Source: Klebsiella electrica | Lineage (GTDB): Bacteria; Pseudomonadota; Gammaproteobacteria; Enterobacterales; Enterobacteriaceae | Assembly (NCBI RefSeq): GCF_006711645.1 | Contig: NZ_CP041248.1 | Coordinates: 186,001 to 250,000, forward strand | Length of the DNA: 64,000 nt | Direction of reading: 5' to 3' | Shown here: positions 48,399 through 64,000 of the stretch, in pieces | Layout: each line of letters starts with the position of its first letter | Position numbering within the stretch: position 1 is the stretch's first letter | Notes under the pieces: generated by a model | What the model was told of the DNA's origin: nothing | Databases searched by the model: none | Seen by the model: only the letters and a program-made list of their open reading frames with translations | Position numbers and translations under genes: made by a program

Positions 48399-48477
48399 TT
48401 TATTTTCCTTGGGACACCAGTAGGTTTGTTATTCAATACTAACCCGACTCATTCACGTGACGAAGTATCCAGGCAAT

Positions 48478-50716: not shown

Positions 50717-51739
50717 TCAATCATCGCCGTAAAGCATCAAGTCAACGCCATAGTTCCAGAAACCAATGGCATTACTGGCAACAGGCAACGGGCTCGATAC
50801 GATCCTGGCTCGGGGGAATTCTTCTCGTATGGTCTGTTCGTAGAACCTTGTCCCACCACCGGCAGCTGCAATGATATGGACTGGCCCGAGAACCCTTGTC
50901 GATTTTCGCAACTCTTTGACTACATCACTGGCGATGGAGGGAATAGCTTCTTCAAGCAGAGGACGTAGGGAAATGTGGCGGAACCCATTAAAGAAAGACT
51001 GCTCATTGTTACGGAGAGCGATTTCAATAATTTCTGGTAGATCATCAATTCGCTCTTCCGGGTTATCGGCATTAAGGCGGTTCACAATGCTTTCGATAAT
51101 TGCACTGGTTGCTTTTAATGATGAACCTGAAGAGCCTGATACCCTGCTTCCGCTCTTAAAGGCGATGTAGTCCATCGAGAAGAAGCCAGGGTCAACCACG
51201 AGAATGGTCGACTTCTCTAATTCTTCCTGACTGATAAGGCCCGGTCTGTTAACGATGTCATTGATGACACCAACGCCCTGCTGAAGAACGAGGCATTTTT
51301 TAACAGTCACTGTTTTTCCTGGCGCAATAGTAAACGTACCGGTGAGCCTCGCAGTCAGTTTCGCGCGTTCACTTTCATTAGCAAGACGGACAGGTAAACC
51401 AGTTACTACCAGGTCGATTTCATTGCCTGCTTTAGCAGTGATTTTATCCAGTGAGGCCAGATATAGTGCCAGGTACATTTCTGTCATGTGGTAACGGTCA
51501 TGCAGCTCACGCGCATCGGGGCGTTCGGTAAAAGCCCGCCATTCTTTACCTCCTGGGTACACCAACACTTCATGTTCGCAGCTACGCTTTACCAGCCGCA
51601 CATCATCTACTGGCTCATTCGTAGCGTAGGCCGGATAAATACTGACTGTGGGTTTGTCATCCGCTGAATCCCCTACAGCAATTTTTACATTGCTGTATCC
51701 AATATCAATTCCGCAGACAACCAATTTGTCATTGCTCAT
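50717..51739 (-). CDS. parM: ParM/StbA actin-like segregation ATPase
   Basis: 340 residues. The actin-fold phosphate-1 motif CGIDIGYSNVKIAVGD opens the protein. VVDPGFFSMDYIAF and IIAAAGGGTRFYEQTI give phosphate-2 and adenosine motifs. It polymerises into filaments that push plasmid copies apart. First gene of the minus-strand operon parM-parR-slt-acaD-like-acaC. Its upstream region (51740 onward) holds an inverted-repeat box shared with tra promoters. Confidence 0.9.
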   Translation of the reverse strand: MSNDKLVVCGIDIGYSNVKIAVGDSADDKPTVSIYPAYATNEPVDDVRLVKRSCEHEVLVYPGGKEWRAFTERPDARELHDRYHMTEMYLALYLASLDKITAKAGNEIDLVVTGLPVRLANESERAKLTARLTGTFTIAPGKTVTVKKCLVLQQGVGVINDIVNRPGLISQEELEKSTILVVDPGFFSMDYIAFKSGSRVSGSSGSSLKATSAIIESIVNRLNADNPEERIDDLPEIIEIALRNNEQSFFNGFRHISLRPLLEEAIPSIASDVVKELRKSTRVLGPVHIIAAAGGGTRFYEQTIREEFPRARIVSSPLPVASNAIGFWNYGVDLMLYGDD

Positions 51740-52389
51740 TCGTTAACCCTGCAAGTTAAAAATGAATTACTGCCACTCCGATAACATTTGAGCGCCAAAA
51801 AGGGGTTCGCACTAACGTAAAGAAAGGTGGCCTCCCTCTGTCAACGTCGGGAATTAACCGTTAACAAGTTGTAACATGGTATTCAAACGATCATCGATTA
51901 CCATTTTTTTTATCGGCAAAACGTCCCCATTTTTGACATTAATAATGGCTAGATACGGACGTTTAAAATGTCAGATATGTACATAAATGCTGCATGAAAC
52001 TGGACGTCATATATGGCTAAATCCGGCCCTAAAAACCTTAACCCCTAACCTAAATCAGACTGAGGAAATTAGGTGGTAATGTATGAGGGCAACACATTTA
52101 GATTGGCTTTCCGCCTGGGGATTTCGCGGAGTATATATACTAAAAACACATGCTTCGGTGAGGTGAATTAAGGTATGTTGTGGCGATTACTCAAGGGTAC
52201 ACTTCGTGAAAATTTTACTTAAGCACAAGTTATAATTTCACTTAAATATGCATATCTCCCCTTCACTTCCCCCCCAAAAAAACTCTCTCAAACTAGTATA
52301 TATACCTACAAAATGTGACATAAATCACTATGAAGTTACTGTGATTTAGGATTGATCCTGAAGACGGAGGGAGGTGATGGAAGTTTCAG
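51740..52389. promoter_or_regulatory. Long intergenic region upstream of parM
   Basis: No gene is supported. AAAACGTCCCCATTTT (51918-51933) is the core seen before traI and traF. Two nested inverted repeats cover it: AAACGTCC (51919-51926)/GGACGTTT (51957-51964) and TGACATT (51934-51940)/AATGTCA (51967-51973). GTATATATAC occurs at 52131 and 52296, and ACTTAA direct repeats near 52220-52245. The region should hold the parM promoter and may hold part of the centromere. Confidence 0.5.
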
Positions 52390-52397
52390 CTGCGTTT

Positions 52398-52880
52398 GCC
52401 ATTGTATTCTCCAGAAAGGTAACAAAAAGTGGAAAAGCCAGAAACATAAGTTTCTGCCATATCATATAGCGACTCTACATAATCGTTTACTAAGAGGTTT
52501 GTGCAGCGGTGGGCGTCATCCCGTTAATCGCCTCTACATTAGGGGAAGTAAGTTTCCATTATATTCCCCAGAAACCTATTAAAAATCAGAAATGCCCAGA
52601 AACGTAGTTTTCTGCCATATCATATAGAGATTGGCAAACTGCTTGATTAAAATAAAATGGCTTGATAAAAGTACCCGTACAGATAGATATTAATAGCTCA
52701 ATCACCAGATTGCCATTGTATTCTCCAGAAACATGCAAAAAATGAGAACACCCAGAAAGATACTTAACTGGAGAATCAATCTTTCCTGTTTTGGAACTGA
52801 AAACTAAAAATCGAACCTGAAAAGGAGTTTTCTCTTTCTCCAGAAACATAGAGTTCTGGCGTAATAATAGAGATTCTCTT
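52398..52880 (+). repeat. CCAGAAA repeat and palindrome array; candidate oriT or centromere
   Basis: CCAGAAA occurs seven times: 52411, 52438, 52568, 52596, 52725, 52752 and 52840. GCCATTGTATTCTCCAGAAA is duplicated exactly at 52398-52417 and 52712-52731. Three copies form inverted repeats: CAGAAAC/GTTTCTG near 52439, CAGAAA/TTTCTG near 52597 and CCAGAA/TTCTGG near 52840. The first two continue into CCATATCATATAG. In IncC and SXT elements oriT lies just upstream of mobI, and this array ends 40 bases before a MobI-like gene. A ParR centromere is the main alternative. Confidence 0.55.
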
Positions 52881-52922
52881 TTTTGGGGTTAAGTCCTAAT
52901 CAAAAAACATCGAGGTGGTTTT

Positions 52923-53354
52923 ATGCAACTCGTCGGGTACATCAATGATCTGGAAAAGGCTCGTGATGCGGTTGATTCAGCCGCAGAACTTCTGTTTAAC
53001 GAGGCCAATAGTCTTCGGGAGGAATACTGGGACAAAGCTATTGCTGATGACGAGAAGGCACGGTACAGCTTTAACGTAACCAGGCAAGGAACAACTATCA
53101 GGATCCGCTGGGCCAGATTGACACCTTTGCGCAAAGCTGGTGGAGGCATTGATCGTGTCGTTCCCAAATACCTACCTCTCAACAAAGGCGAATCATATCC
53201 ACCAGCGAAATTTAAGGATGCAAGCCAGCGAGAACTTGCGCTTATCGAACTGTATGAAGGTCAGCTTATTTGGTTGCGTGATGAGTTACGAAAAAACCGT
53301 GCAATTCGGCAGGCACTTTCACTTCGAATAACTCACCTAAGAAAACAGCTTTAG
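52923..53354 (+). CDS. mobI: MobI-like relaxosome accessory protein
   Basis: 143 residues, soluble. The pattern is N-terminal helices with EANSLREEYWDKA, then beta strands in RYSFNVTRQGTTIRIRWARL. KYLPLNKGESYPPAKFKD follows, then a C-terminal coiled helix (ALIELYEGQLIWLRDELRK). This order of features recalls MobI proteins of SXT and IncC, which act at oriT with MOBH TraI. GAGGTGG precedes the start. Its palindrome-rich upstream region agrees with an oriT-adjacent gene. Confidence 0.65.
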   Translation: MQLVGYINDLEKARDAVDSAAELLFNEANSLREEYWDKAIADDEKARYSFNVTRQGTTIRIRWARLTPLRKAGGGIDRVVPKYLPLNKGESYPPAKFKDASQRELALIELYEGQLIWLRDELRKNRAIRQALSLRITHLRKQL

Positions 53355-53373
53355 AAATACAAACCGCTCTGGA

Positions 53374-53386
53374 GTAAACATAACGG
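53374..53386 (+). promoter_or_regulatory. GTAAACATAACGG motif copy
   Basis: One base differs from the GTAAACAAAACGG copies before traK and traF. It lies between the MobI-like gene and its terminator. Confidence 0.35.
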
Positions 53387-53395
53387 ATATACATG

Positions 53396-53423
53396 AATAC
53401 CAGGCGATGACCTGGTATTTTTG
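53396..53423 (+). terminator. Rho-independent terminator after mobI
   Basis: ATACCAGG (53397-53404) and CCTGGTAT (53411-53418) stem with following Ts. Confidence 0.9.
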
Positions 53424-53466
53424 TTAGTGAGCCTTCAGGCGATCTGTTAGTGAGCCTTCAGGCGAT
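53424..53466 (+). repeat. Tandem 20-bp repeat, two copies
   Basis: TTAGTGAGCCTTCAGGCGAT at 53424-53443 and again at 53447-53466, three bases apart. Each holds the small palindrome GCCTTCAGGC. Confidence 0.9.
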
Positions 53467-54230
53467 AGCGGACTTATCGCGGCGGAAATGAATCAGGATG
53501 ATCGCAATATGATCGCGAGTGTTTTCGCCCGGGTATGATCGGGTGGGAATGCAGCGGACTATTTCGCGGGCGCGAATATGGAAGGTAAACAAAGCGGAAG
53601 CGATAGCGTCGGTTTTCTCTATTTTTACATCGGGAGGTTGAGCATGGTAATAATCAAACCGCACGATGTCGGAGGAAAGATGAATTTCCTCCGGGGGTTT
53701 TTATGGGCAACCGGAGGTTGCCCTGGTTTTAATCGCCGGGGAAAACCAAAAGTGAATAACCAACATGGTTTTCCTCCGGGGGTTTTTGTCGCGGCGAGTA
53801 CCGCTTAGAAATTGTGATCGGCTATCGAAACGGACAATATGAAGTCGATACCCTCGTTCGGAATAACTTCCCTCCCGATACACGCGTAAACAAAACGAAA
53901 CCATTAACAAATTATCGCTCAGATTATCAAAGTGGATCATCTCCGTCTCATACCAGCCAAATTCCCTTGTAAACCGATCTGTATTCGCAAAAGGATCCGT
54001 TATTGGGATAAAACCACGCCAGAATCGCCTCAGAACGATTCTGAGCTTATCCCCCTGGTATTTTCACGATCGGATTGATTAAAACGCGCCTGAGCGTTTT
54101 GAGCGCGTTTTGTAGATCGACATATCTGTAAATTTCCTGAGTATGGTTTGGCTATGCCCTGATTTTGTTCCGAACGGGGAAGCCGTTATGATTAGGTCTG
54201 AATGTAAAGCACTTGTAGAGGTGATGCGGT
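53467..54230. other. Palindrome-rich non-coding region between mobI and the first leading-region gene
   Basis: No gene is convincingly coded. Inverted repeats include GCGATA/TATCGC near 53463-53481 and TTCGCG/CGCGAA (53563-53576). At 54005-54053 GGGATAA/TTATCCC encloses AGAATCG/CGATTCT. AAAACGCGC/GCGCGTTTT lies at 54081-54111. CCTCCGGGGGTTTTT is repeated near 53688 and 53773. GTAAACAAAACGA is at 53886-53898. The density of structure on a presumed transferred strand suggests primosome, single-strand promoter or origin functions. Confidence 0.5.
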
Positions 54231-54920
54231 ATGAGTCACGAGCGCATTGAGGTTTTTGGTGATGGAGGCAGCTGGATAGCCGAAAGGCTTAAGTCATTCA
54301 GGTTAACGATCTTGGGTCAAAGTGAGTCGTTGTCTATCGTCAGGAACCCGACTGACAATTCTGCCTGGGTGACTCACGATGATACCGGCCTTGTTTTATG
54401 TCCCCTCCATGTTGATGGTTCGTTGGCCCCGGATATCGCTGAAGCTACTGAGACGGTGGAGAAATACATCTCCCGAGTGAGCCCTGCGGGAATATCAGCA
54501 CGGATAAAGCAAGCCCGTAACCACCTGGATAGAATTGCCGCACCGGTAGACTCACGTTCTGCGGCAGCACTGTTAAGACGTGGCGGAATCCCGATTCTCT
54601 CACTGCGAACCACGGAATATCTGAAGTGGTACGAGTTGTTAGCGAGACTGGCGAAAGGTCAGGCTCTGTCACCATCCATCTGGGTGGATAACTACCTTGC
54701 CGGTGATACACCAGAAAGTGCATGGGCTAATGGACGCGGACTCTATGAGTTAATCAACAATGGGAATATGACATCAGCCAATACGATTTTCCCGGTCTGG
54801 TATTCTGTAGCTCTCGCACTGGGAAGATTCACAACAGAAGAACTACCTGTGATGAACGCCTGGCCGAGCTATTGTGATGGAACCCGTGTGGAGAGTTTTA
54901 TCCAGTTGTATCGTGATTAA
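54231..54920 (+). CDS. Unknown protein, first sizeable leading-region gene
   Basis: 229 residues, soluble, with no recognised motif. AGAGGTGATGCGGT precedes the ATG. It follows a strongly palindromic upstream region. Its location next to the presumed oriT would make it one of the first genes to enter a recipient, where anti-defence functions are common, but the sequence itself gives no functional clue. Confidence 0.6.
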   Translation: MSHERIEVFGDGGSWIAERLKSFRLTILGQSESLSIVRNPTDNSAWVTHDDTGLVLCPLHVDGSLAPDIAEATETVEKYISRVSPAGISARIKQARNHLDRIAAPVDSRSAAALLRRGGIPILSLRTTEYLKWYELLARLAKGQALSPSIWVDNYLAGDTPESAWANGRGLYELINNGNMTSANTIFPVWYSVALALGRFTTEELPVMNAWPSYCDGTRVESFIQLYRD

Positions 54921-54987
54921 TTCTTATTCATATGTCATATGATTAACGCTAAAGAAGATCTGCGGTAAGTCTGGCCGTTACCCGGAA

Positions 54988-55053
54988 CCCCGGGACAGAC
55001 CGAAACTTGCTTTCGGGTTGTCTCGGGGTTGGCCGAGCGAAGCGCTGGCAAGC
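54988..55053 (+). repeat. Hairpin repeat, copy 1
   Basis: CCCCG..GGACA..CCGAAA, loop CTTGC, TTTCGG..TGTCT..CGGGG forms a 16-bp stem with one internal loop. The second hairpin AGCG/CGCT within GCC/GGC follows. About 55 bases recur at 55325-55385 with a few changes that keep the pairing. Confidence 0.7.
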
Positions 55054-55079
55054 ACCACACCTATTTTGAGGAGAAGCCA

Positions 55080-55265
55080 ATGTTAATTTCGTATAAGAGC
55101 AAATTGAAATTAGGATCTATCGCACTATGTTCATTTGGTGTAGGTATGGGCGTTATGCTATCAAAAACCGTTCCACTATCTTTAAGCGCTGTAGTAGTAC
55201 TCGCCTTTTTCTGGTTACTCTCAATCATTTGTTTAGGGGTTGCTGCTTTCTTTTGTTCCGATTGA
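55080..55265 (+). CDS. Small two-helix membrane protein
   Basis: 61 residues from the ATG at 55080 (GAGGAG 9 bases upstream). Two hydrophobic helices (about 11-29 and 36-58) with a short turn. It lies between the two hairpin repeats. No family recognised. Confidence 0.55.
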   Translation: MLISYKSKLKLGSIALCSFGVGMGVMLSKTVPLSLSAVVVLAFFWLLSIICLGVAAFFCSD

Positions 55266-55324
55266 AATTGTGTAGTTCATACAGTACCCCGAATAATCCC
55301 CGCCTTTGTCAGTAGATAACCGTG

Positions 55325-55385
55325 AGGCAGACCGAAACTTGTTTTCGGGCTGTCGAGGGGTTGGCCGAGCGAAGCGCTGGCAAGT
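55325..55385 (+). repeat. Hairpin repeat, copy 2
   Basis: AGACCGAAACTTG onward matches copy 1 at 54997. The outer stem here is GGCAG/CTGTC instead of the longer GC stem of copy 1, with the inner CCGAAA/TTTCGG and the GGCCGAGCGAAGCGCTGGC hairpin kept. It precedes the 55515 gene. Confidence 0.7.
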
Positions 55386-55514
55386 ACAGACCATATTGTT
55401 CCCCCTGCATTTCTCATCGCTAAATTCTTTCTTGAAATATCGTCAGATTCCCTGTTTGTCACCCACCAGCCTCATGTTGTTATTGACCTAACTGCCATTC
55501 AATGGGAAGCAACA

Positions 55515-56078
55515 ATGTTTAATTTAATCGCGAAGGCTAAAGAAGCAGGTTATCAATTCTGGATCAGTGCCTCCAAGGTACTGACAGTTACTACCGGAAC
55601 CGAGATGGGGCTGACGATTATTAAAACTGTAACTGATATTAACCCTTGCTTGCTGGTGGCGGAGTTAATGAACCTTGGGATCACGTTATCCCCAGATAAT
55701 AATTATTTCTGCTGGTTGGATAGCGAAGGTGTCCTTTGGGCCGTTGACCGCCACCATCTCTATCGAGGAAATACAGGGGAGCATGGGGTAAACTGGGATG
55801 TCGTCTATCATCACGGCATGGTAATTAATACCCCTGAGCAGGCATCCATCCTTTTCAAAATTCCCCACATTGGGCGCTTTACTGCCACTGTAATGTATAG
55901 CGCTGGCTATACACCCGACTGGGCTCTTCCAGCCTTTGTTGATTTTTCTGGTGAACCGGATCATGAAACAATACTGTCGTGGTTATCCGAGGTAGGCATT
56001 CGTAATGCAGGAATGCATCTCGAAGATATTGAGTTTCTTTCTGTTGAAGAAAATCCCGACGCTTATATCTCTCTTTAA
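55515..56078 (+). CDS. Unknown soluble protein
   Basis: 187 residues. A central WLDSEGVLWAVDRHHLYRGN segment and an acidic C-terminal part are visible, with no signal or membrane segment. GGGAAG precedes the ATG. Twelve bases separate it from the next gene, so the two are probably co-transcribed. No family recognised. Confidence 0.6.
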   Translation: MFNLIAKAKEAGYQFWISASKVLTVTTGTEMGLTIIKTVTDINPCLLVAELMNLGITLSPDNNYFCWLDSEGVLWAVDRHHLYRGNTGEHGVNWDVVYHHGMVINTPEQASILFKIPHIGRFTATVMYSAGYTPDWALPAFVDFSGEPDHETILSWLSEVGIRNAGMHLEDIEFLSVEENPDAYISL

Positions 56079-56090
56079 TGAGGTCTCTGT

Positions 56091-56507
56091 ATGTCAAACG
56101 TTAAACCTTATTCCTGGGTAGTTCGCTTCGATGTTGCTCCTCAGTGGGTAGCTGACGGCTTTATCATGACAGATACCACAGCTCTCGAAATGCTATCTGA
56201 TGTTATCAACTATGCAAACGATCACGAACTTGCCGCATTGGTTATTTCAGCACCCGATGCAGAAAGAATTTCCGAGGAGCAAGGCTATTTGGCTTCTAAC
56301 AATGCGGAGCTAATGCGTCAGGTGCTAATCGGCTCACCGCAGGCATATGCTAAAGCATCTGTGGCAAATACCCTGCTAAAGGCTATAACCGCACTTGAGC
56401 AAACGCAGGATAATAAGCAGGTCGTTAAAGAACTGCATTCCAGCCTCGCTTTACTGACGGGCAATAAGCCTATTTCGGACATTATCTGGTTTCCAACCCC
56501 AGAATAA
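56091..56507 (+). CDS. Unknown soluble protein
   Basis: 138 residues, mostly helical and slightly acidic. ATGAGGTCTCTGT supplies the ribosome site. Probably in one operon with the preceding gene. No family recognised. Confidence 0.6.
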   Translation: MSNVKPYSWVVRFDVAPQWVADGFIMTDTTALEMLSDVINYANDHELAALVISAPDAERISEEQGYLASNNAELMRQVLIGSPQAYAKASVANTLLKAITALEQTQDNKQVVKELHSSLALLTGNKPISDIIWFPTPE

Positions 56508-56554
56508 TTCTTTCATAAAGAGCTTAAATCTTTAGCTCATTTATTTATGGATTT

Positions 56555-56628
56555 TCTATTCGTCAGCCACCCAGCGTGTGTTTAACTGAAGTTAGTAAAC
56601 AAAACGAAAAACATACGCGGGGTGATTT
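56555..56628 (+). promoter_or_regulatory. Leading-region stem-loop module 1
   Basis: CACCCAGCGTGTGTTT (56568-56583) pairs with AAACATACGCGGGGTG (56609-56624): 16 positions with one mismatch and one G-T. The loop contains AACT/AGTT and GTAAACAAAACGA (56595-56607). TTCGTCA lies just before the stem. The ATG of the next gene is 4 bases past the stem, which contains its ribosome site (GGGGTGA). The same plan recurs at 60887, 61938 and 63804. Confidence 0.6.
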
Positions 56629-56880
56629 ATGAATACTGCAATTCATCAAGTACGAAATAACGTTCGTCGCACTACATCTGCACGTCCTGTTTGTTATCCA
56701 GTTCGCCCGCAGACAGAGAAAGAACTTTTTTCTGTAGGCCGCAGCCTCTGGTATCGCTACACCACTTCATTTGGCCCGTGCCGTGAAGTTCACCATCATC
56801 ATGTGCAGCAGCTTGCACACCTGGTGGGTAAATCTGTTGGCTATGTTGAACATGCCATTAATCATTACCTCACGCATTGA
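56629..56880 (+). CDS. Unknown small basic protein
   Basis: 83 residues, rich in Arg and His (REVHHHHVQQLAHLVGKSVGYVEHAINHYL). The C-terminal part could form a helix-turn-helix-like pair, but this is weak. It starts directly after stem-loop module 1. No family recognised. Confidence 0.55.
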   Translation: MNTAIHQVRNNVRRTTSARPVCYPVRPQTEKELFSVGRSLWYRYTTSFGPCREVHHHHVQQLAHLVGKSVGYVEHAINHYLTH

Positions 56881-56895
56881 ACGAGGCGGCTTAAT

Positions 56896-57168
56896 ATGTC
56901 TACTCAAATCTATTGTGCGGTGCTTCGCCATTTCATGATGATGGCTGCATCCTCCCAGCACTCATTGATTGTGCTGAAGCAATTATATAACGCAGAGATT
57001 TCATCGAAAGCTCACCTGGCCGGTCTCTCCGTGTCCGAAGCTGAAGCGCTCCTGGCTCTACCATCCACCAGCTGGCGCAAACGCGATGATGTAATTCATG
57101 AGCTGAACATTCGCCTTAAGCAACTCACTAGCGTAGCCACACCGCCAGCTCAACAAGTCGCAAACTGA
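56896..57168 (+). CDS. Unknown small protein
   Basis: 90 residues, helical (LSVSEAEALLALPSTSWRKRD). ACGAGGCGGC precedes the ATG; it is 15 bases after the previous gene and probably in the same operon. No family recognised. Confidence 0.55.
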   Translation: MSTQIYCAVLRHFMMMAASSQHSLIVLKQLYNAEISSKAHLAGLSVSEAEALLALPSTSWRKRDDVIHELNIRLKQLTSVATPPAQQVAN

Positions 57169-57181
57169 AGGAGTCTATAAC

Positions 57182-57565
57182 ATGCTGCCATTTCTCATTT
57201 TGCTGTTCTGCTCATCGCCTGAGACGGCGCGAATGATCCTAATCTACGCTACCGATGAATCTGCGGCCCGCCTCCAGGCGCTTGAAGATTTCGCACGTCT
57301 GAATGATTCGGGTTTTGCTGCTTCCGCCCAAACCCCATATGAGTGGGAGAATCCTCACGGTGACCAGCTCTTTATTGAGTCGGTATACCCGGTTCCATCC
57401 GGCGATTTATCTGCTATCCGCCGTATGCTCGGGGATGACGATGCCCCATATACCGACAAGCACCTTATTGCCGGTTTACTGGAGGACAGCCGACGTATCC
57501 AGATGATTGAACCGAATGCCGGTACTCTTTCTCGTATTGCTCAGGCAGAGCAGTACCTTCAGTAG
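57182..57565 (+). CDS. Unknown small protein
   Basis: 127 residues. The first 20 are hydrophobic (LPFLILLFCSSPETARMILIYA), which may be a core strand pair rather than a signal. The remainder is acidic. GAAGGAGTC precedes the ATG. Probably in the operon starting at 56629. No family recognised. Confidence 0.55.
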   Translation: MLPFLILLFCSSPETARMILIYATDESAARLQALEDFARLNDSGFAASAQTPYEWENPHGDQLFIESVYPVPSGDLSAIRRMLGDDDAPYTDKHLIAGLLEDSRRIQMIEPNAGTLSRIAQAEQYLQ

Positions 57566-57627
57566 ACTTGTGTTCCGACCGCCCACCAGCAGGTGGGCTT
57601 CGGGCTAATTTCCTGTACGAGGTATGT

Positions 57628-58332
57628 ATGCAAGGTACACCACGCTGGTGGCAGAACGGTCGTCGGGTGCAGGCCGTTCTCGCAGAGAATCAGACCGCAG
57701 ATGTAAGGCTCAATATCGGCCCAGAAAATGACTTCTGGTTTACTGATGATGGTAATAATCCTGTTGCTGTGCTTAGGGTTATCGGCCCGGTCTGTCCACT
57801 GGATCCGCTAAAATTCACCTCCAGTATCACTGATGTCCTTCCTGAAGATGTCCATAGCTATAAAAAAGCCCTTCAGGAACACCAGATGATAAACCGGCCT
57901 GTCTCGTTCTATCTTGCACTTGCCGATGCCTGGTTGCTTGTTAACGAACAGCAGCCGGTTTACCAGTTCCGCATCCGAAACCAGTACAACGGCATGACTA
58001 CTGAATGGAATTCCGTTGCCCGGGACAAAGTCATTGAAGTGATTAAGATGCAGCCGGAAACCGCTGAATTCCGGGTTCTCGTCCCATCGGCTCCTGAGCC
58101 TGCTGCGAATGCCCGGCAGTTGATCTCAGAAATTGAAGGTCTGCGTGAAGCTATTGGGAAACTCTACCCGGCAAATACTGATGTACGTCGTATTGCCAGA
58201 AACAGCGGCTGGATGCATGTATACGACGACACCAATGCCAAAATGAACTTTGCAGACAATGCCAGAAATACCCCTTATCTCGATGCCTTTGTGACTCAAC
58301 TGCATCTCTTCCTCACAGATGATCGAGAGTAG
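57628..58332 (+). CDS. Unknown soluble protein
   Basis: 234 residues from the ATG at 57628 (GAGGT upstream); an extension of 20 residues has no ribosome site. Mixed alpha/beta, with WYQF-like VYQFRIRNQYNGMTTEW and an acidic C-terminus. No family recognised. 168 bases without a gene follow. Confidence 0.6.
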   Translation: MQGTPRWWQNGRRVQAVLAENQTADVRLNIGPENDFWFTDDGNNPVAVLRVIGPVCPLDPLKFTSSITDVLPEDVHSYKKALQEHQMINRPVSFYLALADAWLLVNEQQPVYQFRIRNQYNGMTTEWNSVARDKVIEVIKMQPETAEFRVLVPSAPEPAANARQLISEIEGLREAIGKLYPANTDVRRIARNSGWMHVYDDTNAKMNFADNARNTPYLDAFVTQLHLFLTDDRE

Positions 58333-58500
58333 ATGTAAAACCTCCCTGAATCTTTCTGCTCTAACCAGCGCTGTCATATAGCATTTTTTTGACGGCGCTG
58401 CCGGTTGCGCTTTTATCAAACATGGTAAATACATTGTTTCATGCTGTCTGGCTCCCGGGCGCGGAGTTATCGTTGATGGAACCAAGTTGAGATATTCGAA

Positions 58501-59673
58501 ATGAAAAGACCAACGGCACATAAAAATGACCGTCTGCCGGTGCGAAGATCTAACCCTACAACGCCTCAAGCAAGAGAGCGCGTTATTGCCGGGCTGGTGG
58601 CCTCAGCTACATCTGACTTCGTCTACCTCGTTCAGTGGCTGAAATCAGGAAAGCAGAACGGTGACCCTCTACAGCTATCCAGATGGGATAGCCTGAGAAA
58701 TGCAATAAGCCACCTTGAGACGCTTGATGCTGGTGTACAACCTGACTGGCGCAAAGTCCTCACCCTGGTGTCGCGGGAAATTCATACCAGCCATAATGTC
58801 CAGGCGGTTGTTACTCCTCCGTCTAAAATCGCCGGTGGTATACTCAGCAACCTTAACGACATCAGCCAGAAGATAGCGACCGGGCTTGCTTCCCCTGACA
58901 TGCTCGGCAGGCTCGATTATATGCTTCAGTTGACCGCAGGCCTGGCAGGTGGTGATGATCTGACGCAAAGCATCCGTAAGGTTTCAGACAGTGCAGAAAA
59001 AGCCCTACGTGGTTATGACAAGCCGCAGGCAAAGGCCAAAACGCCTAAACCGGCCCCACCAGCTCCTGCATTCCGGGATGATCAGACGTTCAGGCAAGAG
59101 TGTGCGCCACTGATTGGGGTTGATGACCTCTTTGTTCTGGCTAATTGCCTTATTGCGATGTCCGCCCGCCTGGGCCGTTCTCCTGTCAGCCTAGCGAAAC
59201 GCGCAGCGGGTTTAAAAGGTGTGATTAAACCCGATATGCTGGCTGACCTGCTGGAGCTCTTACAGCAGGACGTGGATCTGACCGCCCTGGCCCCGCCACC
59301 CAGGGTTAAAGACGATAATAGCCGCAGTGATGGAGGTAAGCTCGTCGGTTTAACCGGGGTCGTCGAAGGTGGCGCGTCAATCGGTGCTGAAGCGCAGCGT
59401 ATCATCACCGCAGAACTGAAGAAGCACTCGCCGCTCACTTCGGCGCAGCGCGTATCTTTCGATACCGCCCGTGCGGGTCTGGCGCTGGAGAGCGATACAT
59501 TCCGGGTTATTGAAGAGATCAGACGTATTGCAGCATCACTCAACTGGAGACCGCTGGCTGTCGCGGCCCATGCCGCGCATAAATCGCCTGGTATCCGCCC
59601 GGAGATTGCCGGGGATGTGATCACGTTGCTGGCGCAGGATGAGGCCTTAACCACCAGCAAGCCTAGCCGTTAA
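58501..59673 (+). CDS. Unknown helical protein, basic N-terminus
   Basis: 390 residues, almost all helical and Ala/Leu-rich, with a basic N-terminus (MKRPTAHKNDRLPVRRSN) and a Lys/Pro linker near 180. Two related segments end each half: LAKRAAGLKGVIKPDMLADLLELL and VAAHAAHKSPGIRPEIAGDVITLL. This suggests an internal duplication. Ribosome site is weak. No family recognised. Confidence 0.6.
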   Translation: MKRPTAHKNDRLPVRRSNPTTPQARERVIAGLVASATSDFVYLVQWLKSGKQNGDPLQLSRWDSLRNAISHLETLDAGVQPDWRKVLTLVSREIHTSHNVQAVVTPPSKIAGGILSNLNDISQKIATGLASPDMLGRLDYMLQLTAGLAGGDDLTQSIRKVSDSAEKALRGYDKPQAKAKTPKPAPPAPAFRDDQTFRQECAPLIGVDDLFVLANCLIAMSARLGRSPVSLAKRAAGLKGVIKPDMLADLLELLQQDVDLTALAPPPRVKDDNSRSDGGKLVGLTGVVEGGASIGAEAQRIITAELKKHSPLTSAQRVSFDTARAGLALESDTFRVIEEIRRIAASLNWRPLAVAAHAAHKSPGIRPEIAGDVITLLAQDEALTTSKPSR

Positions 59674-60052
59674 GTACCTGCCGCGCTGACTACAGCTTAC
59701 CTCGCGATATTGCACCAGCAGCTCAGAAATAATACCGGTATAAACGTCCGCGTTTTGCCGGTATTTTAATTCGCCCTATTTTTAGAATTAGCGATAATAG
59801 CGTTGCTTATTACGTATTTTTACACTCAGAAACCTTCGTCACATGAATAGGGTATGGTTCACTGAATAGACAAAGACGTTAAATCTGGTCAGCTACAGAA
59901 AGGAGGATTTATGTAAATGCTCTCGTTACGTTCAAACTCTTAAAAAACTGCCGCGCCTGCCTATATAAGCCAGGCTGTAGACCTGAAGTCTACAAATTTA
60001 GCGTTACTGACAATTCACAATCCAGTGAACCGGCCCACACTAAGGAGGTTAT

Positions 60053-60088
60053 ATGCGAACGCGTAACTTTAAATCTGAGTCTATGTAA
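60053..60088 (+). CDS. Eleven-codon ORF behind a perfect Shine-Dalgarno sequence
   Basis: MRTRNFKSESM, preceded at 60041-60049 by TAAGGAGGT, complementary to nine bases of the 16S 3' end. Spacing to the ATG is 3 bases, slightly short. It could be a leader peptide, or only a ribosome-loading site in a regulatory RNA. Confidence 0.3.
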   Translation: MRTRNFKSESM

Positions 60089-60304
60089 TCTGATCAGCTG
60101 GCGCTGCCGAGAATGGCGGACTCCGCTACCCCGGTGATAGACCGGGGTAGCAGGAAGAAAGAGTAACGATTTACCGGTTTTAAAACCAAATTTTCGTCAA
60201 ATGGGATACAAGCGCCCAAGGCCGGTTCCCGTCTGACAGACCGAAGTTGTGATGTGTGCATCGCCCCCCTGGAAGTTGTTTTATTGAATTGCTGTGTGTA
60301 GTTT

Positions 60305-60332
60305 TGCGGGGATAATACCCCGCTTTTTTTTT
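60305..60332 (+). terminator. Rho-independent terminator
   Basis: GCGGGG and CCCCGC stem followed by nine Ts. Ends the transcript that includes the tiny ORFs. Confidence 0.9.
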
Positions 60333-60465
60333 GCTTATTCTTCTTCGTCACCCCACCTTCCTGTGCCATCATACGTATAGAAAATAACTTTTCACTTCTG
60401 ACCCTTTTTCAGTTGAAGTCTTATGATTTGATATTCCGCTAATACACACACATTAAGGAATGAAA

Positions 60466-60801
60466 ATGAGCAACGATATTCATAACAAAATTGCTGATGC
60501 TTTAGCTTCTGTTGGTTTAAAACTTTCCGATGGATATACCCGGGCCGCACTCTTACTGAAGATGAAAGGTTCAGTTAGTCTCAATTTTGCTGTTGATGGC
60601 AAACCTGTCACTGTCACTCTCCATATGACTGAATCGGGTGATGTTACTGCTACCACTGATTATGACGATTCAACCGCTACTGCCGCAGCAGCAGCCGCAG
60701 CCACTACAACGCCAACACAAGAGTCGGTGGAAAAACCAGCAGAAGAGTCGGTGGAAGAGCCAGAAAAAAGTAATACACGAAAAGGCCCAAGGCCTAAGTA
60801 A
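60466..60801 (+). CDS. Unknown small protein with Ala/Glu-rich tail
   Basis: 111 residues from the second ATG (AAGGA lies at a good distance from it but too close to the first). Residues 1-65 look folded (IADALASVGLKLSDGYTRAAL, NFAVDGKPVTVTLHM). A run of Ala/Thr then leads to repeats of ESVEKPAEESVEEPEK and a basic GPRPK end. The tail is disordered. No family recognised. Confidence 0.6.
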   Translation: MSNDIHNKIADALASVGLKLSDGYTRAALLLKMKGSVSLNFAVDGKPVTVTLHMTESGDVTATTDYDDSTATAAAAAAATTTPTQESVEKPAEESVEEPEKSNTRKGPRPK

Positions 60802-60849
60802 TAACTGCGCTGGAACTACATGTTGGCATAATTATAAATATCAAAACTG

Positions 60850-60873
60850 GCGGGGTTAAATCCCCGCTTTTTT
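60850..60873 (+). terminator. Rho-independent terminator
   Basis: GCGGGG (60850-60855), TTAAAT, CCCCGC and six Ts. Confidence 0.9.
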
Positions 60874-60885
60874 ATGCCCGATTTC

Positions 60886-60948
60886 CTTCGTCACCTGAAT
60901 ACCCCGTGAGACTATAAGTAAACAAAACGAACAACACGGGGCAACGCC
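60886..60948 (+). promoter_or_regulatory. Leading-region stem-loop module 2
   Basis: CTTCGTCACC (from 60886), then CCCCGTG (60902-60908) pairing with CACGGGG (60935-60941). The loop holds TATAAG followed by GTAAACAAAACGA (60918-60930). The 3' arm GGGG lies just before the ATG at 60949. TATAAG would suit a -10 element. Confidence 0.6.
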
Positions 60949-61542
60949 ATGACCACCAGCAAAGAGAAAAATGTATTCTACGTTCACTACTATGAATCCG
61001 ACTCCAGTGGTGGCGAACTGCCACTGATGCGCATTGAAGCGGAGAACGAAGATGAAGCCAACCTGATCTGTCTTCGCAACCTCGCGGATGTTTATGACGT
61101 TGATCATGACGACATCAGTCTTGAAGACGGCTTCGAAGTGAACGGCAATAGCGTTTATCTGCAAGGTATCTACCCGGCGACCTCAGAGCAGGCACTGGTA
61201 GTTGATGCGGTATTTAATATGACTTCTGTAGAACCAGTCGCTGAGGCTGTGACCGGCACGGCGGAATCCGCCTGCGGTATCAGCCTGGTCTCTGATAAGG
61301 TCTGGCTGGAAAGCTGGTTCGACCTCGAAGACAAATTTGCTGATCAGATGGCCCACGTCGCTGAAGATGACAAGTCTGATACACGCTTCTTGCTCTACCG
61401 TGACCAGGTCATCGATGTGCGTGAATGCGAGACATCTTCTGTCCCAGGCTGGGATCTCCAGTTCGGCTTGAGCGGCGGTACGCAGATGCTATTCATTCGC
61501 CTTTCTGATGATGGCGATCACGTTGCACTGGGTCTCGAATAA
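60949..61542 (+). CDS. Unknown highly acidic protein, possible DNA mimic
   Basis: 197 residues with a strong excess of Asp and Glu spread along the chain (for example VYDVDHDDISLEDGFEV and ESWFDLEDKFADQ) and few Lys/Arg. No ArdA motif is recognised. Acidic proteins of this size in leading regions often mimic DNA to block restriction or other defences. That is an inference from charge and place only. It begins directly after stem-loop module 2. Confidence 0.6.
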   Translation: MTTSKEKNVFYVHYYESDSSGGELPLMRIEAENEDEANLICLRNLADVYDVDHDDISLEDGFEVNGNSVYLQGIYPATSEQALVVDAVFNMTSVEPVAEAVTGTAESACGISLVSDKVWLESWFDLEDKFADQMAHVAEDDKSDTRFLLYRDQVIDVRECETSSVPGWDLQFGLSGGTQMLFIRLSDDGDHVALGLE

Positions 61543-61634
61543 CTGCTGCCTGCGCCCGGGCTTGTTTGCCCGGGTTGCTCCCCTCCCCTGAATCAAACCG
61601 AGTATCATGACATCATTCTGAGGAGTACCAGACG

Positions 61635-61901
61635 ATGAGCGAAGTAAAGCACTTCAGCATCACGAAAACCGTTGATTTTTACATCAATGAAGCATCCCCG
61701 GAAATTATTGCGGGCCGCAGGATCTATCTGGAAACCGTATTGATTCCTCGCCTTCGTACCGGCCTTGCCGTGCTCAATAAGATGGGCCTGACCGAGCGTG
61801 AAGATATGGAGCTGCGCGATGTGTACCAGCGTGGCGTGGAATTTTTTGACAAATTGTTCGATGGCCCTGTCCCGCAGGCCAATACCACCACCAGCCACTA
61901 A
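61635..61901 (+). CDS. Unknown small protein
   Basis: 88 residues, helical and soluble (RLRTGLAVLNKMGLTEREDMELRD). GAGGAGTACC precedes the ATG. No family recognised. Confidence 0.55.
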   Translation: MSEVKHFSITKTVDFYINEASPEIIAGRRIYLETVLIPRLRTGLAVLNKMGLTEREDMELRDVYQRGVEFFDKLFDGPVPQANTTTSH

Positions 61902-61936
61902 TCCGCAAATTTTGTCCTTTTTTTACCCGGCTCTGA

Positions 61937-62009
61937 CTTCGTCACCCGGGTAACCAGTGATTTAATAAGTAAACAAAACGAACATACCAATAATCACTGG
62001 GGATGCACC
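61937..62009 (+). promoter_or_regulatory. Leading-region stem-loop module 3
   Basis: CTTCGTCACC at 61937, then CCAGTGATT (61954-61962) pairing exactly with AATCACTGG (61992-62000). The loop has TAATAA and GTAAACAAAACGA (61969-61981). A preceding ACCCGG/CCGGGT pair brackets the CTTCGTCA tract. The gene at 62010 starts 9 bases after the stem. Confidence 0.65.
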
Positions 62010-62468
62010 ATGTTTAAAAGTCTGTCTGAATTGATGACCAGCGTTGGCAAGACTGATGCGCATAAAGTCTCGATAGTCCAGGTTAAAACCGGTGTCACCT
62101 CGTGGGGCCGCAAAAACCAGTCATCCCGGCCTACGGCTGAATACCAGATCTGGATGGATACTCCTGACAACGACAGTCGTATCGTCCTGAAGCTGAATTT
62201 CGTGCTGAGTTCCCGCCGTAACCAGCCTGAGAAGAATGCGCCCCTGAATATTGAAATCAGCCAGTACGCTAACTGGGATACGGTGAAACGCGCCTGGGCG
62301 GAATGCGCTCCTGAACGCTATATGCGGCTGGAGAATGAAACGACAGATGAGTTTATGTCCACCAGCGGGGTCTGGGAAGAAGCATCCGTCATCACCAATG
62401 ACATGCAGCCGGATTACCGCTACTTCTATCCAGGCACGTCCTATTACGTGGCAAACGACAGCTACTGA
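62010..62468 (+). CDS. Unknown protein, paralogue 1 of a tandem pair
   Basis: 152 residues. GVTSWGRKNQSSRPTAEYQIWMDTPDN and SRIVLKLNFVLSSRR align with the next gene's GITSWGSRR..VFLDAPDNASRITVKTEFVL. The C-terminal parts differ. It follows stem-loop module 3 and is 35 bases from its paralogue. No family recognised; related pairs of small proteins are frequent in leading regions. Confidence 0.65.
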   Translation: MFKSLSELMTSVGKTDAHKVSIVQVKTGVTSWGRKNQSSRPTAEYQIWMDTPDNDSRIVLKLNFVLSSRRNQPEKNAPLNIEISQYANWDTVKRAWAECAPERYMRLENETTDEFMSTSGVWEEASVITNDMQPDYRYFYPGTSYYVANDSY

Positions 62469-62503
62469 AGCCAGAAAACACACCATATAACCGAGGATCT
62501 ACC

Positions 62504-62980
62504 ATGACCGACGCTATCCAGACTGCCCCTGAAAGCTTCAGCCTTTCTTCCCTGACCGACCTGTATCGCACAGTGCAGGCAACCGAGTCCCACGCTCTTT
62601 CAATGATGCGTGTCCAGAGGGGGATCACCTCCTGGGGGAGCCGTCGTATAACTGACCGCCGAACTGAGGGGTTCACCGTCTTTCTGGATGCGCCGGATAA
62701 CGCCAGCCGTATTACTGTTAAAACGGAGTTCGTGCTGAATGCAGCAAAGACCGGCCCTGATACGTCTAATGATCTGGTGGTGGAAGCGCGTGAACATTCA
62801 GGCTGGGATGAGAGCCGGAATTGTTTCACTGTTACCCGCGAGATCGGCGAACTGCGGGTTAATGCTGGTGGTGAAAATCATGCTGCTACACTTCGTCAGC
62901 TGTGGAAGCTGCTTCACGCGCAGGCAAAAGCCTACCAGTCCAGAAATACTGCCGGTAACGCCACCTGGCTTATGTTCTGA
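62504..62980 (+). CDS. Unknown protein, paralogue 2 of a tandem pair
   Basis: 158 residues. The core segment GITSWGSRR, LDAPDNASRI and KTEFVLNAAK matches paralogue 1. The N-terminus is longer and the C-terminus (LRQLWKLLHAQAKAYQ) is a helix not present in the first copy. CGAGGATCTACC precedes the ATG. Probably co-transcribed with paralogue 1. Confidence 0.65.
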   Translation: MTDAIQTAPESFSLSSLTDLYRTVQATESHALSMMRVQRGITSWGSRRITDRRTEGFTVFLDAPDNASRITVKTEFVLNAAKTGPDTSNDLVVEAREHSGWDESRNCFTVTREIGELRVNAGGENHAATLRQLWKLLHAQAKAYQSRNTAGNATWLMF

Positions 62981-63054
62981 TAAGCCCCGGGCATGGTAAT
63001 GTGCGTCACGACATTACGCCGTGGCGCACTACGTTCGTTTAGAAGGAAATGAAG

Positions 63055-63330
63055 ATGAAAATAAGCCAGCTGGAAGTCGGGATGAGTGTCTGGTCGGTTA
63101 GCCGGGTAAATATGGGCAACACCACACTTAAAACAGTTGTCGTCCACCCGGTCGTGATTGTCGAAGTCCATGATAACCACGTCATAGCCACCTGGAATGG
63201 TAACGCCCCGCGTCGTTTCGGTGAGTCCGTCGTTAAGGGCTGGAAGAAAGAAAAGCCGTTGCTGATCCGTGAAGGTTTCGGGCAAATGCGCCTGGCTACC
63301 AGGGAAGAGAAAGCGCTGGCTGGTAAGTAA
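63055..63330 (+). CDS. Unknown small basic protein
   Basis: 91 residues from the second ATG of a close pair (AGAAGGAA gives better spacing to it). Beta-rich, SH3-like in pattern (VVHPVVIVEVHDNHVIATWNGNAPRRF), with a basic C-terminal half. No family recognised. Confidence 0.55.
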   Translation: MKISQLEVGMSVWSVSRVNMGNTTLKTVVVHPVVIVEVHDNHVIATWNGNAPRRFGESVVKGWKKEKPLLIREGFGQMRLATREEKALAGK

Positions 63331-63334
63331 CCCC

Positions 63335-63430
63335 CTTCGTGACCTGTATGACCCGTGGTGTAATGGCTCCGACAACCTGGCAGTTTTCGCAACGCAACAC
63401 TCTGCCGCAAATCACCCTCCACGGGGCCAG
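63335..63430 (+). promoter_or_regulatory. Leading-region stem-loop module 4 (variant)
   Basis: CTTCGTGACC near 63335, then CCCGTGG (63352-63358) pairing with CCACGGG (63419-63425). The loop is longer and lacks the GTAAACAAAACG core but contains CTGGCAG/CTGCC. A divergent member of the series. Confidence 0.45.
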
Positions 63431-63444
63431 ACAGGGAATACACG

Positions 63445-63717
63445 ATGACCGATGCCATTCTCTCTGAAGAGCTGTACTTCAAATACCTCAACACCTACGA
63501 ACGCGAAAGCAGGTTTCGCATTGACTCTTTTCGCTTTGATGGCGAGCCTCAGTGGACAACCAAATTCGGTCAAGCTCGCATCCGCCCTTCTCAGGTACGT
63601 GTACTGCTCTGCCGCTGCGGGGCAAACAACTGGAAAGACGATGGCAGGTTCGCCAATGAGTACTGCTGCGACAGCTGCGGACAGTTCGTGGAGGTGCTAC
63701 AGCATAACGACCGTTGA
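63445..63717 (+). CDS. Unknown small protein with zinc ribbon
   Basis: 90 residues. The C-terminal half has CRCGANNWKDDGRFANEYCC and CDSCG, consistent with a four-Cys zinc ribbon (CxC, then CCxxC). The N-terminal half is polar. No clear Shine-Dalgarno. No family recognised. Confidence 0.55.
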   Translation: MTDAILSEELYFKYLNTYERESRFRIDSFRFDGEPQWTTKFGQARIRPSQVRVLLCRCGANNWKDDGRFANEYCCDSCGQFVEVLQHNDR

Positions 63718-63802
63718 TTCGCGTCCCGGGGCCGGAGCTGATGGCTCACTGATAAACCATTTCAGACCGACATATTCATTCTGATAATACCCGACGTATC
63801 GC

Positions 63803-63871
63803 CTTCGTCACCTGCCGGGCCCGTGTTGTACTGGTATCAGTACAACATAAAACGAGATCACGGGGCGCATC
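63803..63871 (+). promoter_or_regulatory. Leading-region stem-loop module 5
   Basis: CTTCGTCACC (from 63803), then CCCGTG (63820-63825) pairing with CACGGG (63859-63864). An inner GTTGTACT/AGTACAAC hairpin fills the loop, followed by ATAAAACGA, a variant of the AACAAAACGA core. The next ATG is 7 bases past the stem. Confidence 0.6.
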
Positions 63872-64000
63872 ATGCAGACACTGACCGACGTATTCAGCGA
63901 TAAGGCGAATAAAGCCTTTCATTCGATTTTCGCCGATTTCCTGCCCACCAGCGCGGATGGGGTAATCACCTTTACGGTTCGCGGCTATGGCGGAAAAACT
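63872..64000 (+). CDS. Unknown protein, cut by the window end
   Basis: 43 codons are visible, beginning MQTLTDVFSDKANKAF and open to the last base. GGGGCGC precedes the start. It directly follows stem-loop module 5. Too short to classify. Confidence 0.5.
   Translation, partial: MQTLTDVFSDKANKAFHSIFADFLPTSADGVITFTVRGYGGKT

What the first reader, a model, noticed from the sequence alone, without database searches (positions are those of the whole stretch)
56555..63871. Series of covarying stem-loops before leading-region genes: candidate single-strand promoters
Modules at 56555, 60886, 61937, 63335 and 63803 share a 5' TTCGTCA or TTCGTGA tract. Each has a 6-16 bp stem whose sequence differs in every copy (CACCCAGCGTGTGTTT, CCCCGTG, CCAGTGATT, CCCGTGG, CCCGTG, each with its inverse). 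Three loops contain GTAAACAAAACGA and a fourth ATAAAACGA. Four modules end close before an ATG. All downstream genes point the same way, away from the presumed oriT. The design resembles Frpo/ssi-type single-strand promoters, which express leading-region genes in the recipient before second-strand synthesis. Operators for one repressor are the alternative.
Basis: partly seen in the sequence, partly recalled or inferred. Interest (0 to 1): 0.85.

Follow-up and report, generated by a model that had tools for sequence, protein, structure and literature searches.

The report
Promoter array for plasmid establishment genes
A large conjugative plasmid carries many copies of one promoter type in front of the genes next to its presumed transfer origin, and some copies also carry a hairpin that probably stops stray read-through RNA from being translated; these look like ordinary double-strand promoters, not single-strand ones.

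Summary
The five modules exist and are not chance. They belong to a promoter family: TTCGTCA(C/G)C, then a -10 hexamer 17 bp from TTCGTC, often with an extended -10 TG. In the 64 kb around and after mobI the core occurs 21 times on the gene strand and once on the other, about 1 expected on each. Related plasmids show the design with shifted cores. The stems are a real add-on in a subset: own arms pair better than swapped arms (12 strong stems in 79 curated modules, 2.6 expected). In 12 of 17 stems scoring 15 or more the 3' arm covers the Shine-Dalgarno region, and the 5' arm lies upstream of the predicted start. Single-strand promoters are unlikely: by synteny oriT lies upstream of mobI, the genes point away from it, and transfer of a relative runs downstream through mobI, so the transferred strand would be the coding strand; no predicted fold holds -35 and -10 in one duplex; no Frpo similarity. 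Best reading: dsDNA sigma-70-type promoters of an establishment (zygotic) regulon, with a hairpin that hides the ribosome site of read-through mRNA in a subset. Start sites, polarity, timing and regulator are inferred.

The parts
51740..52922 (.). Candidate oriT region between ParM/StbA gene (-) and mobI (+), with repeats CCAGAAACATAAGTTTCTGCCATA-like at 52438, 52596, 52840
   Evidence: Same ParM(-)/gap/mobI(+) order as pRA1; Rts1 oriT located between orf251 and mobI; repeats. No convincing sequence match to the pRA1 gap.
52923..53354 (+). mobI
   Evidence: Pfam PF19456 MobI, E 1.4e-16; annotated MobI(A/C) in pCFR-4109.
56559..56628 (+). Module 1: core TTCGTCAGC, -10 TTAACT 56582-56587, arms 56568-56583 / 56609-56624 (3' arm on SD), GTAAACAAAACGA 56595-56607
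56629..56880 (+). Gene after module 1, 83 aa, no family found
59835..59870 (+). Further promoter-like copy (TTCGTCACA...TTCACT) with no plus-strand ORF of 60 aa or more directly after it
60344..60375 (+). Further core copy TTCGTCACC with weak -10 CATCAT, before gene 60460-60801
60887..60948 (+). Module 2: core TTCGTCACC, -10 GACTAT 60910-60915, arms 60902-60908 / 60935-60941 (CCCCGTG/CACGGGG, 3' arm on SD)
60949..61542 (+). Gene after module 2, 197 aa; C-terminal part matches phrog_1845, unknown function
61938..62009 (+). Module 3: core TTCGTCACC, -10 TTTAAT 61961-61966, arms 61954-61962 / 61992-62000 (CCAGTGATT/AATCACTGG)
62010..62468 (+). Gene after module 3, 152 aa, no family found; orthologues in relatives keep the layout with different stems
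63336..63444 (+). Module 4: core TTCGTGACC, -10 TGTAAT 63359-63364, arms 63352-63358 / 63419-63425; 3' arm upstream of the SD
63445..63717 (+). Gene after module 4, 90 aa; phrog_3805, unknown function
63804..63871 (+). Module 5: core TTCGTCACC, -10 TGTACT 63827-63832, arms 63820-63825 / 63859-63864, plus local hairpin 63824-63832 / 63839-63847
63872..64000 (+). Gene after module 5 (101 aa, runs past the window)
48436..48464 (-). Minus-strand copy (CTTCGTCACGTG...TAGTAT) before the lipoprotein-like gene 47628-48398 (-)

Best explanation
The modules are double-stranded sigma-70-type promoters of one plasmid regulon. The conserved core supplies the -35 (TCGTCA, 4 of 6 to TTGACA, 16 bp from the -10) and probably a site for one plasmid-encoded regulator; the -10 is GATAAT/GATACT/TTTAAT-like, often with an extended -10 TG. 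They would fire when the plasmid has just become double-stranded in a new cell, before the regulator has built up (zygotic induction of an establishment regulon). In a subset of copies an inverted repeat pairs the spacer next to the -10 with the Shine-Dalgarno region. RNA started at the module begins after the 5' arm and leaves the ribosome site free; RNA reading through from upstream genes, which nearly all point the same way, carries both arms and hides it. Shown here: the motif, its spacing, strand bias, presence in relatives, covarying stems over the SD in a subset. Inferred: start sites, regulator, timing, translation effect, transfer polarity.
For: Motif 21 forward against 1 reverse, about 1 expected on each strand, -10 at 17 bp in 13 of 21; column conservation in two sets of copies, 19 here and 29 in Providencia/Moellerella; the same layout before orthologous genes with cores TTCGTCACC, TTCGTCAGC, TTCGTTGGC, TTCGTCGGC, TTCGACC and TTCGGCC; arm-swap test; 12 modules with stem score 15 or more and 3' arm over the SD against 3.45 expected, p 5e-5; different stems before orthologues of gene 62010: CCAGTGATT/AATCACTGG here, CCTCATG/CATGAGG in Moellerella, CCTCGTG/CACGAGG and TCGTGT/ACACGA in Providencia; mean predicted SD accessibility in 18 plus-strand modules of this plasmid 0.32 in read-through RNA, 0.53 in own RNA, 0.45 with the 5' part taken from other modules; copies also precede an SSB and a solo ParB-like gene. 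Precedent in Gram-positives: establishment regulons with a repeated promoter (p576) or a repeated leader that prevents read-through (pLS20), PMC8708921, passages.
Against: No start site is mapped and I found no expression data. Strong stems are a minority (12 of 79 at score 17 or more). As whole RNAs, modules 3 and 4 do not fold better than shuffles; in module 4 the 3' arm misses the SD, and in module 5 the strongest hairpin is local. Over all 79 modules the accessibility difference is small (0.40 read-through, 0.50 own, 0.45 swapped). Terminator-like sites precede the copies at 60344 and 60887, which lessens the need for a read-through lock. The module finder favoured a 17-bp spacer and TG, though searches did not. 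The pKOX leader of the 62010 orthologue failed that finder (-10 would be GATGAT) and is placed by eye. Rows include orthologue pairs, so they are not all independent. The regulator is unknown and early expression in recipients is untested.
Confidence: 0.6

Rival explanations
1. Frpo/ssi-type single-strand promoters: the transferred strand folds so that host RNA polymerase transcribes leading genes before second-strand synthesis.
For: Repeated stem-loops before genes beside the presumed oriT; covariation is real; minus-strand ssDNA folds also contain the stems; module 5 has its whole -10 paired.
Against: Genes point away from the inferred oriT, unlike F; transfer of a related MobI system runs downstream of mobI; core and -10 never in one helix in modules 1-5; no Frpo similarity; most modules have no strong stem (67 of 79 score under 17); copies also on the other strand.
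Confidence: 0.06
2. Leader riboregulators: the whole TTCGTCA-to-ATG stretch is 5' UTR of a longer RNA, and a protein, sRNA or temperature opens the SD stem.
For: Stems cover the SD in a subset; recurring A-rich loop GTAAACAAAACGA.
Against: The core stands 17 bp from a -10-like hexamer, often with TG, as a promoter does; many copies lack the stem; no Rfam match up to E 1 in 51000-64000; the A-rich stretch lies just after the -10, where an RNA would start.
Confidence: 0.17
3. The inverted repeats are dsDNA operators of one repressor.
For: Repeated modules in one region.
Against: Arm sequence differs from copy to copy while complementarity is kept. The fixed TTCGTCA core could still be an operator; that is part of the best explanation.
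Confidence: 0.05
4. Hairpins act on the incoming plus strand as ssDNA, for priming or protection.
For: The plus strand is the likely transferred strand (inference), and the stems can form in either strand.
Against: Promoter spacing and SD register fit gene expression better; minus-strand copies exist.
Confidence: 0.04

Closest known systems
Establishment regulons of Bacillus plasmids p576 (Reg repressor, EGeRS2 promoters) and pLS20 (EGeRS1); PMC8708921, passages read
   Same: Many operons of mostly unknown genes, each with a copy of one regulatory sequence; read-through from upstream promoters is prevented in pLS20; one regulator in p576.
   Different: Gram-negative MOBH plasmids; a short 9-nt core at -35; the lock is a per-gene hairpin over the SD in a subset; regulator not identified here.
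Frpo/ssi single-strand promoters of F and ColIb-P9; PMC9849209 and PMC11541004, passages read
   Same: Repeated structured elements before genes beside oriT.
   Different: Opposite gene polarity to the inferred oriT, no shared -35/-10 duplex, no sequence similarity.
Zygotic induction of RP4 by derepression; PMC7314908, passages read
   Same: Leading-region operons induced in transconjugants, attributed to lack of repressors; no single-strand promoter identified there.
   Different: KorA/KorB operators there; here an unassigned core.
Read-through protection of IS10 transposase and the phage T4 lysozyme gene (recalled, from no call; the listings did not show such a paper)
   Same: Hairpin hides the ribosome site in long RNA; own promoter starts inside the hairpin.
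   Different: Single genes there; here a recurring feature in an array of promoters.

Membership tests
Frpo/ssi single-strand promoter | Transferred strand is the template (genes point toward oriT) | tested here: not met
   Genes point away from the inferred oriT; F genes point toward traM/oriT (oriT position recalled); direction from a relative. Polarity of this plasmid itself is inferred.
Frpo/ssi single-strand promoter | -35 and -10 lie in the duplex of a folded single strand | tested here: not met
   Modules 1-5 only: core 0, 3, 3, 5, 3 of 6 and -10 2, 0, 4, 1, 6 of 6 bases paired, never both in one helix.
Frpo/ssi single-strand promoter | Sequence similarity to known Frpo | tested here: not met
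   The two F regions taken as Frpo1 and Frpo2 match each other at 88.8% (E 1e-169); best match on this plasmid E 0.41.
Frpo/ssi single-strand promoter | Transcription of ssDNA by host RNA polymerase | not testable with these tools
   Needs in vitro transcription.
Establishment regulon (p576 type) | One promoter type before many separate operons | tested here: met
   21 forward copies of the core, -10 at fixed distance in 13. Operon boundaries are not mapped.
Establishment regulon (p576 type) | Located in the region that enters first | tested here: inconclusive
   Follows from inferred oriT and direction; no nic map; a second set of copies lies at C2 43-64 kb on the minus strand.
Establishment regulon (p576 type) | One plasmid-encoded regulator, autoregulated | tested here: inconclusive
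   A solo ParB-like protein (HTH_ParB, E 8.5e-05) has its own module here and in Providencia pCHS4.1-3; binding unknown.
Establishment regulon (p576 type) | Transient expression after transfer | not testable with these tools
   No expression data.
Read-through-protected leader (IS10 / T4 e type) | Stem over the Shine-Dalgarno region | tested here: met
   In a subset: 12 of 79 modules at score 15 or more against 3.45 expected.
Read-through-protected leader (IS10 / T4 e type) | Own start site lies after the 5' arm | tested here: inconclusive
   Predicted from the -10 position only.
Read-through-protected leader (IS10 / T4 e type) | Read-through RNA is poorly translated | not testable with these tools
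   Fold predictions only.

The most novel reading that the evidence does not exclude
A Gram-negative establishment regulon that I did not find described in the papers searched: about twenty promoter copies beside the transfer origin of one MOBH plasmid, and the same design with shifted core motifs in Providencia/Moellerella, IncT (Rts1) and pKOX-type plasmids, under one plasmid regulator (candidate: the solo ParB/KorB-like protein), with per-gene covarying hairpins that lock read-through mRNA so that anti-defence and replication genes are made only when their own promoter fires in a new host.
Probability: 0.33. Interest if true: 0.68.

Novelty: new variant of a known kind. Interest (0 to 1): 0.52.

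Why it matters
Leading-region genes help decide whether a plasmid survives entry. Plasmids whose leading genes point away from oriT cannot use single-strand promoters for them, so how these genes are expressed early is an open question. A repeated promoter with a read-through lock gives a testable answer for a plasmid family found in many enterobacteria (101 PLSDB records match 54001-64000), and the motif can be used to find establishment genes among genes of unknown function.

Tried and rejected
Frpo membership: tested by polarity, geometry and BLAST, rejected. Operator reading of the stems: rejected because the arms differ from copy to copy. Pairing of TTCGT with the ACGAA of the loop (pseudoknot): noted by eye and dropped, since several relatives have AACAAAT there. 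oriT sequence comparison with the pRA1 gap: best hit to our region a 12-bp exact match on the opposite strand (E 0.2), best to Moellerella 13 bp (E 0.056), nothing convincing, so direction rests on synteny and MobI. Statements on SXT (DNA 3' of prfC) and MGIVflInd1 (5' of yicC) seen were not resolved against mobI and not used. MAFFT alignment of eight leaders was not structure-aware and was not used for pair counts. Rfam: no match up to E 1 in 51000-64000. Families of downstream proteins: Pfam 0 of 9; 5 of 10 had any match at E 0.1, 3 above the curated cut-off; PHROGs 2 of 10, both of unknown function. pRA1 (IncA) does not show the family: TTCGTCA[CG] 2 forward and 3 reverse in 50 kb. PDB sequence search for the ParB-like protein: nothing. 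Literature: in the listings (17 of 17, 15 of 166, 10 of 54, 12 of 33, 8 of 8, 6 of 6 and 15 of 933 papers shown, titles and abstract starts) I saw no paper on this motif; that is not proof of absence. PMC7498323 was not held.
Full report
Setting. The window is positions 186001-250000 of contig C2 (303,830 bp) of its genome, a MOBH conjugative plasmid; 101 PLSDB records match 54001-64000, 90 of them at 99% or more, 73 from Citrobacter. It carries a MobH relaxase, an SXT-type TraD and TraN, an FlhC-family regulator and MobI (PF19456, E 1.4e-16).

Observation. The five modules are as described. A scan of the whole contig showed that the shared 5' tract belongs to a larger family. In C2 240001-303830, TTCGTSASC occurs 21 times on the plus strand and once on the minus strand; 40 dinucleotide shuffles gave means of 0.95 and 1.18. 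One of the 21, at window 62892, is inside a gene. In C2 1-186000 there are 4 plus and 7 minus copies (about 2.9 and 2.8 expected), and all 7 minus copies lie at 43-64 kb. In 186001-240000 there are 2 plus and 6 minus copies (0.5 and 0.8 expected); I did not examine those 6 one by one. A laxer scan is mostly background. 13 of the 21 have a hexamer with at least 4 of 6 matches to TATAAT at exactly 17 bp from TTCGTC. Without any -10 criterion, columns of an extended -10 and a -10 carry information: T at -10 position 6 in 18 of 19 copies of TTCGTCA[CG]C, TG at spacer offset 14 in 10 of 19; in 29 distinct Providencia/Moellerella copies 26 and 16. Read one base on, the core gives a -35 of TCGTCA, 4 of 6 to TTGACA, 16 bp from the -10. 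So this is a sigma-70-type promoter family with extra conserved bases.

Relatives. tblastn with the product of 62010-62468 found homologues in Providencia, Moellerella, Proteus (including Rts1, IncT) and Klebsiella pKOX-type plasmids at about 28-35% identity. The leaders I read fall into seven groups; each shows the layout, with core TTCGTCACC in ours and pABW_S38a, TTCGTCAGC, TTCGTTGGC or TTCGTCGGC in Providencia/Moellerella, TTCGACC in IncT and TTCGGCC in pKOX; the pKOX copy has a -10 of GATGAT, failed the automatic finder and is placed by eye. TAAACAAA occurs within 60 nt of the core in 6 of 19 and 13 of 29 copies. IncA pRA1 does not show the family.

Stems. I tested the stems by swapping arms. 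For 79 curated modules (121 automatic hits; 91 after filters on core and ATG; pABW_S38a rows and duplicates dropped), pairing between a module's own spacer/-10 and its own leader was compared with pairing to other modules' leaders. Own mean 12.33, swapped 11.00 +/- 0.25, none of 20,000 permutations reached it; 12 modules score 17 or more, 2.6 expected, maximum 10. 17 modules score 15 or more; in 12 of them the 3' arm overlaps the Shine-Dalgarno window, 3.45 expected, p 5e-5. In this plasmid alone, 18 plus-strand modules: 6 against 1.76 (p 0.002) at 15, 3 against 0.89 (p 0.04) at 17. Rows include orthologue pairs and are not all independent. For the leader of gene 62010, Moellerella CCTCATG/CATGAGG against Providencia (pPROV083) CCTCGTG/CACGAGG is a two-sided change. 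In the folds an SD-side stem is predicted in ours, pABW_S38a, both Providencia types, Moellerella and pKOX, but not as such in Rts1: 6 of 7 groups.

Results against a strong stem claim: 67 of 79 modules score under 17; z-scores of the read-through RNA of modules 1-5 are -3.44, -1.86, -0.74, +0.03, -2.09; module 4's 3' arm is upstream of the SD, and module 5's best hairpin is local.

Mechanism. The 5' arm ends at about the -10, so RNA started at the module should lack it, while RNA from upstream genes has both arms. In 18 plus-strand modules of this plasmid mean predicted SD accessibility is 0.32 in read-through RNA, 0.53 in own RNA and 0.45 when the 5' part is taken from other modules; for all 79 it is 0.40, 0.50 and 0.45. 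This is the logic I recall for IS10 and the T4 lysozyme gene, and the pLS20 leader before ardC was reported to prevent read-through (PMC8708921, passages). The genes are nearly all co-directional (47 of 52 CDS listed in the 31 kb after mobI in pCFR-4109; 42 of 45 in the 27 kb after mobI in pCHS4.1-3), so read-through matters; on the other hand some copies already follow terminator-like sites.

Why not single-strand promoters. oriT is inferred upstream of mobI: the order ParM(-), gap, mobI(+) is the same in pRA1; in IncA/C plasmids oriT lies just upstream of mobI (PMC5587640, passages), and Rts1 oriT was located between orf251 and mobI (PMC10838148, passages). For MGIVchHai6, mobilised by an IncC plasmid, transfer 'progresses downstream of mobIM' (PMC7449626, section 10). 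Then the transferred strand is the plus strand, the coding strand of these genes. In F the leading genes point toward traM/oriT (oriT position recalled). The gap itself shows no convincing match to pRA1, so this is inference. Independently, core and -10 never pair within one helix in the folded minus strands of modules 1-5, no Frpo similarity exists, and similar copies precede minus-strand genes.

Regulon and regulator. Genes with a module include a solo ParB-like protein (HTH_ParB, E 8.5e-05), a PAPS-reductase-domain protein, a glutaredoxin-like protein below its cut-off and, on the minus strand, an SSB and a lipoprotein-like gene near traN. The ParB-like protein is 68% identical in Providencia pCHS4.1-3 over 339 residues and has its own module there too, against about 33% for the 62010 product; that makes it my candidate regulator, untested.

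Verdict. Real feature; promoter array of a probable establishment regulon with a read-through lock in a subset; single-strand mechanism unlikely. New variant of a known kind.

Noticed in passing
window 59835-60323: A promoter-family copy is followed by about 490 nt without a plus-strand ORF of 60 aa, holding two strong Shine-Dalgarno sites before tiny ORFs (AGGAGGATTTATGTAA, and AAGGAGGTTATATG with 11 codons), ending in a terminator-like hairpin; 90% identical in pABW_S38a. Possible non-coding RNA or start-stop element.
   Followed up: partly
window 47628-48398 (-): Lipoprotein-like 256-aa protein beside traN with a minus-strand module; copies of the module in the same place in Providencia and Moellerella. 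A surface-exclusion role is a guess.
   Followed up: partly
C2 43-67 kb (L006/L007), minus strand: A second set of module copies on the minus strand before an SSB (PF00436) and a protein that looks like a DNA polymerase III beta clamp by eye (not tested).
   Followed up: partly
L016:1364-2536: Solo ParB/KorB-like protein with its own module; candidate regulator; homologues in 911 plasmid records, most under 60% identity.
   Followed up: partly
window 54980-55060 and 55323-55385: Repeated non-coding element GGGGTTGGCCGAGCGAAGCGCTGGCAAG with flanking stem-like sequence; a similar copy lies before L020:7928 in Providencia. Candidate structured RNA.
   Followed up: no
window 63055-63330: PLSDB labels this ORF as a Brucella mprF defensin-resistance gene predicted by rgi; it is a short protein of about 90 aa without Pfam match, so the label is probably an artefact.
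   Followed up: no
window 52396-52863: Repeats in the candidate oriT region: a 53-nt unit three times 157 bp apart and CCAGAAACATAAGTTTCTGCCATA three times.
   Followed up: partly
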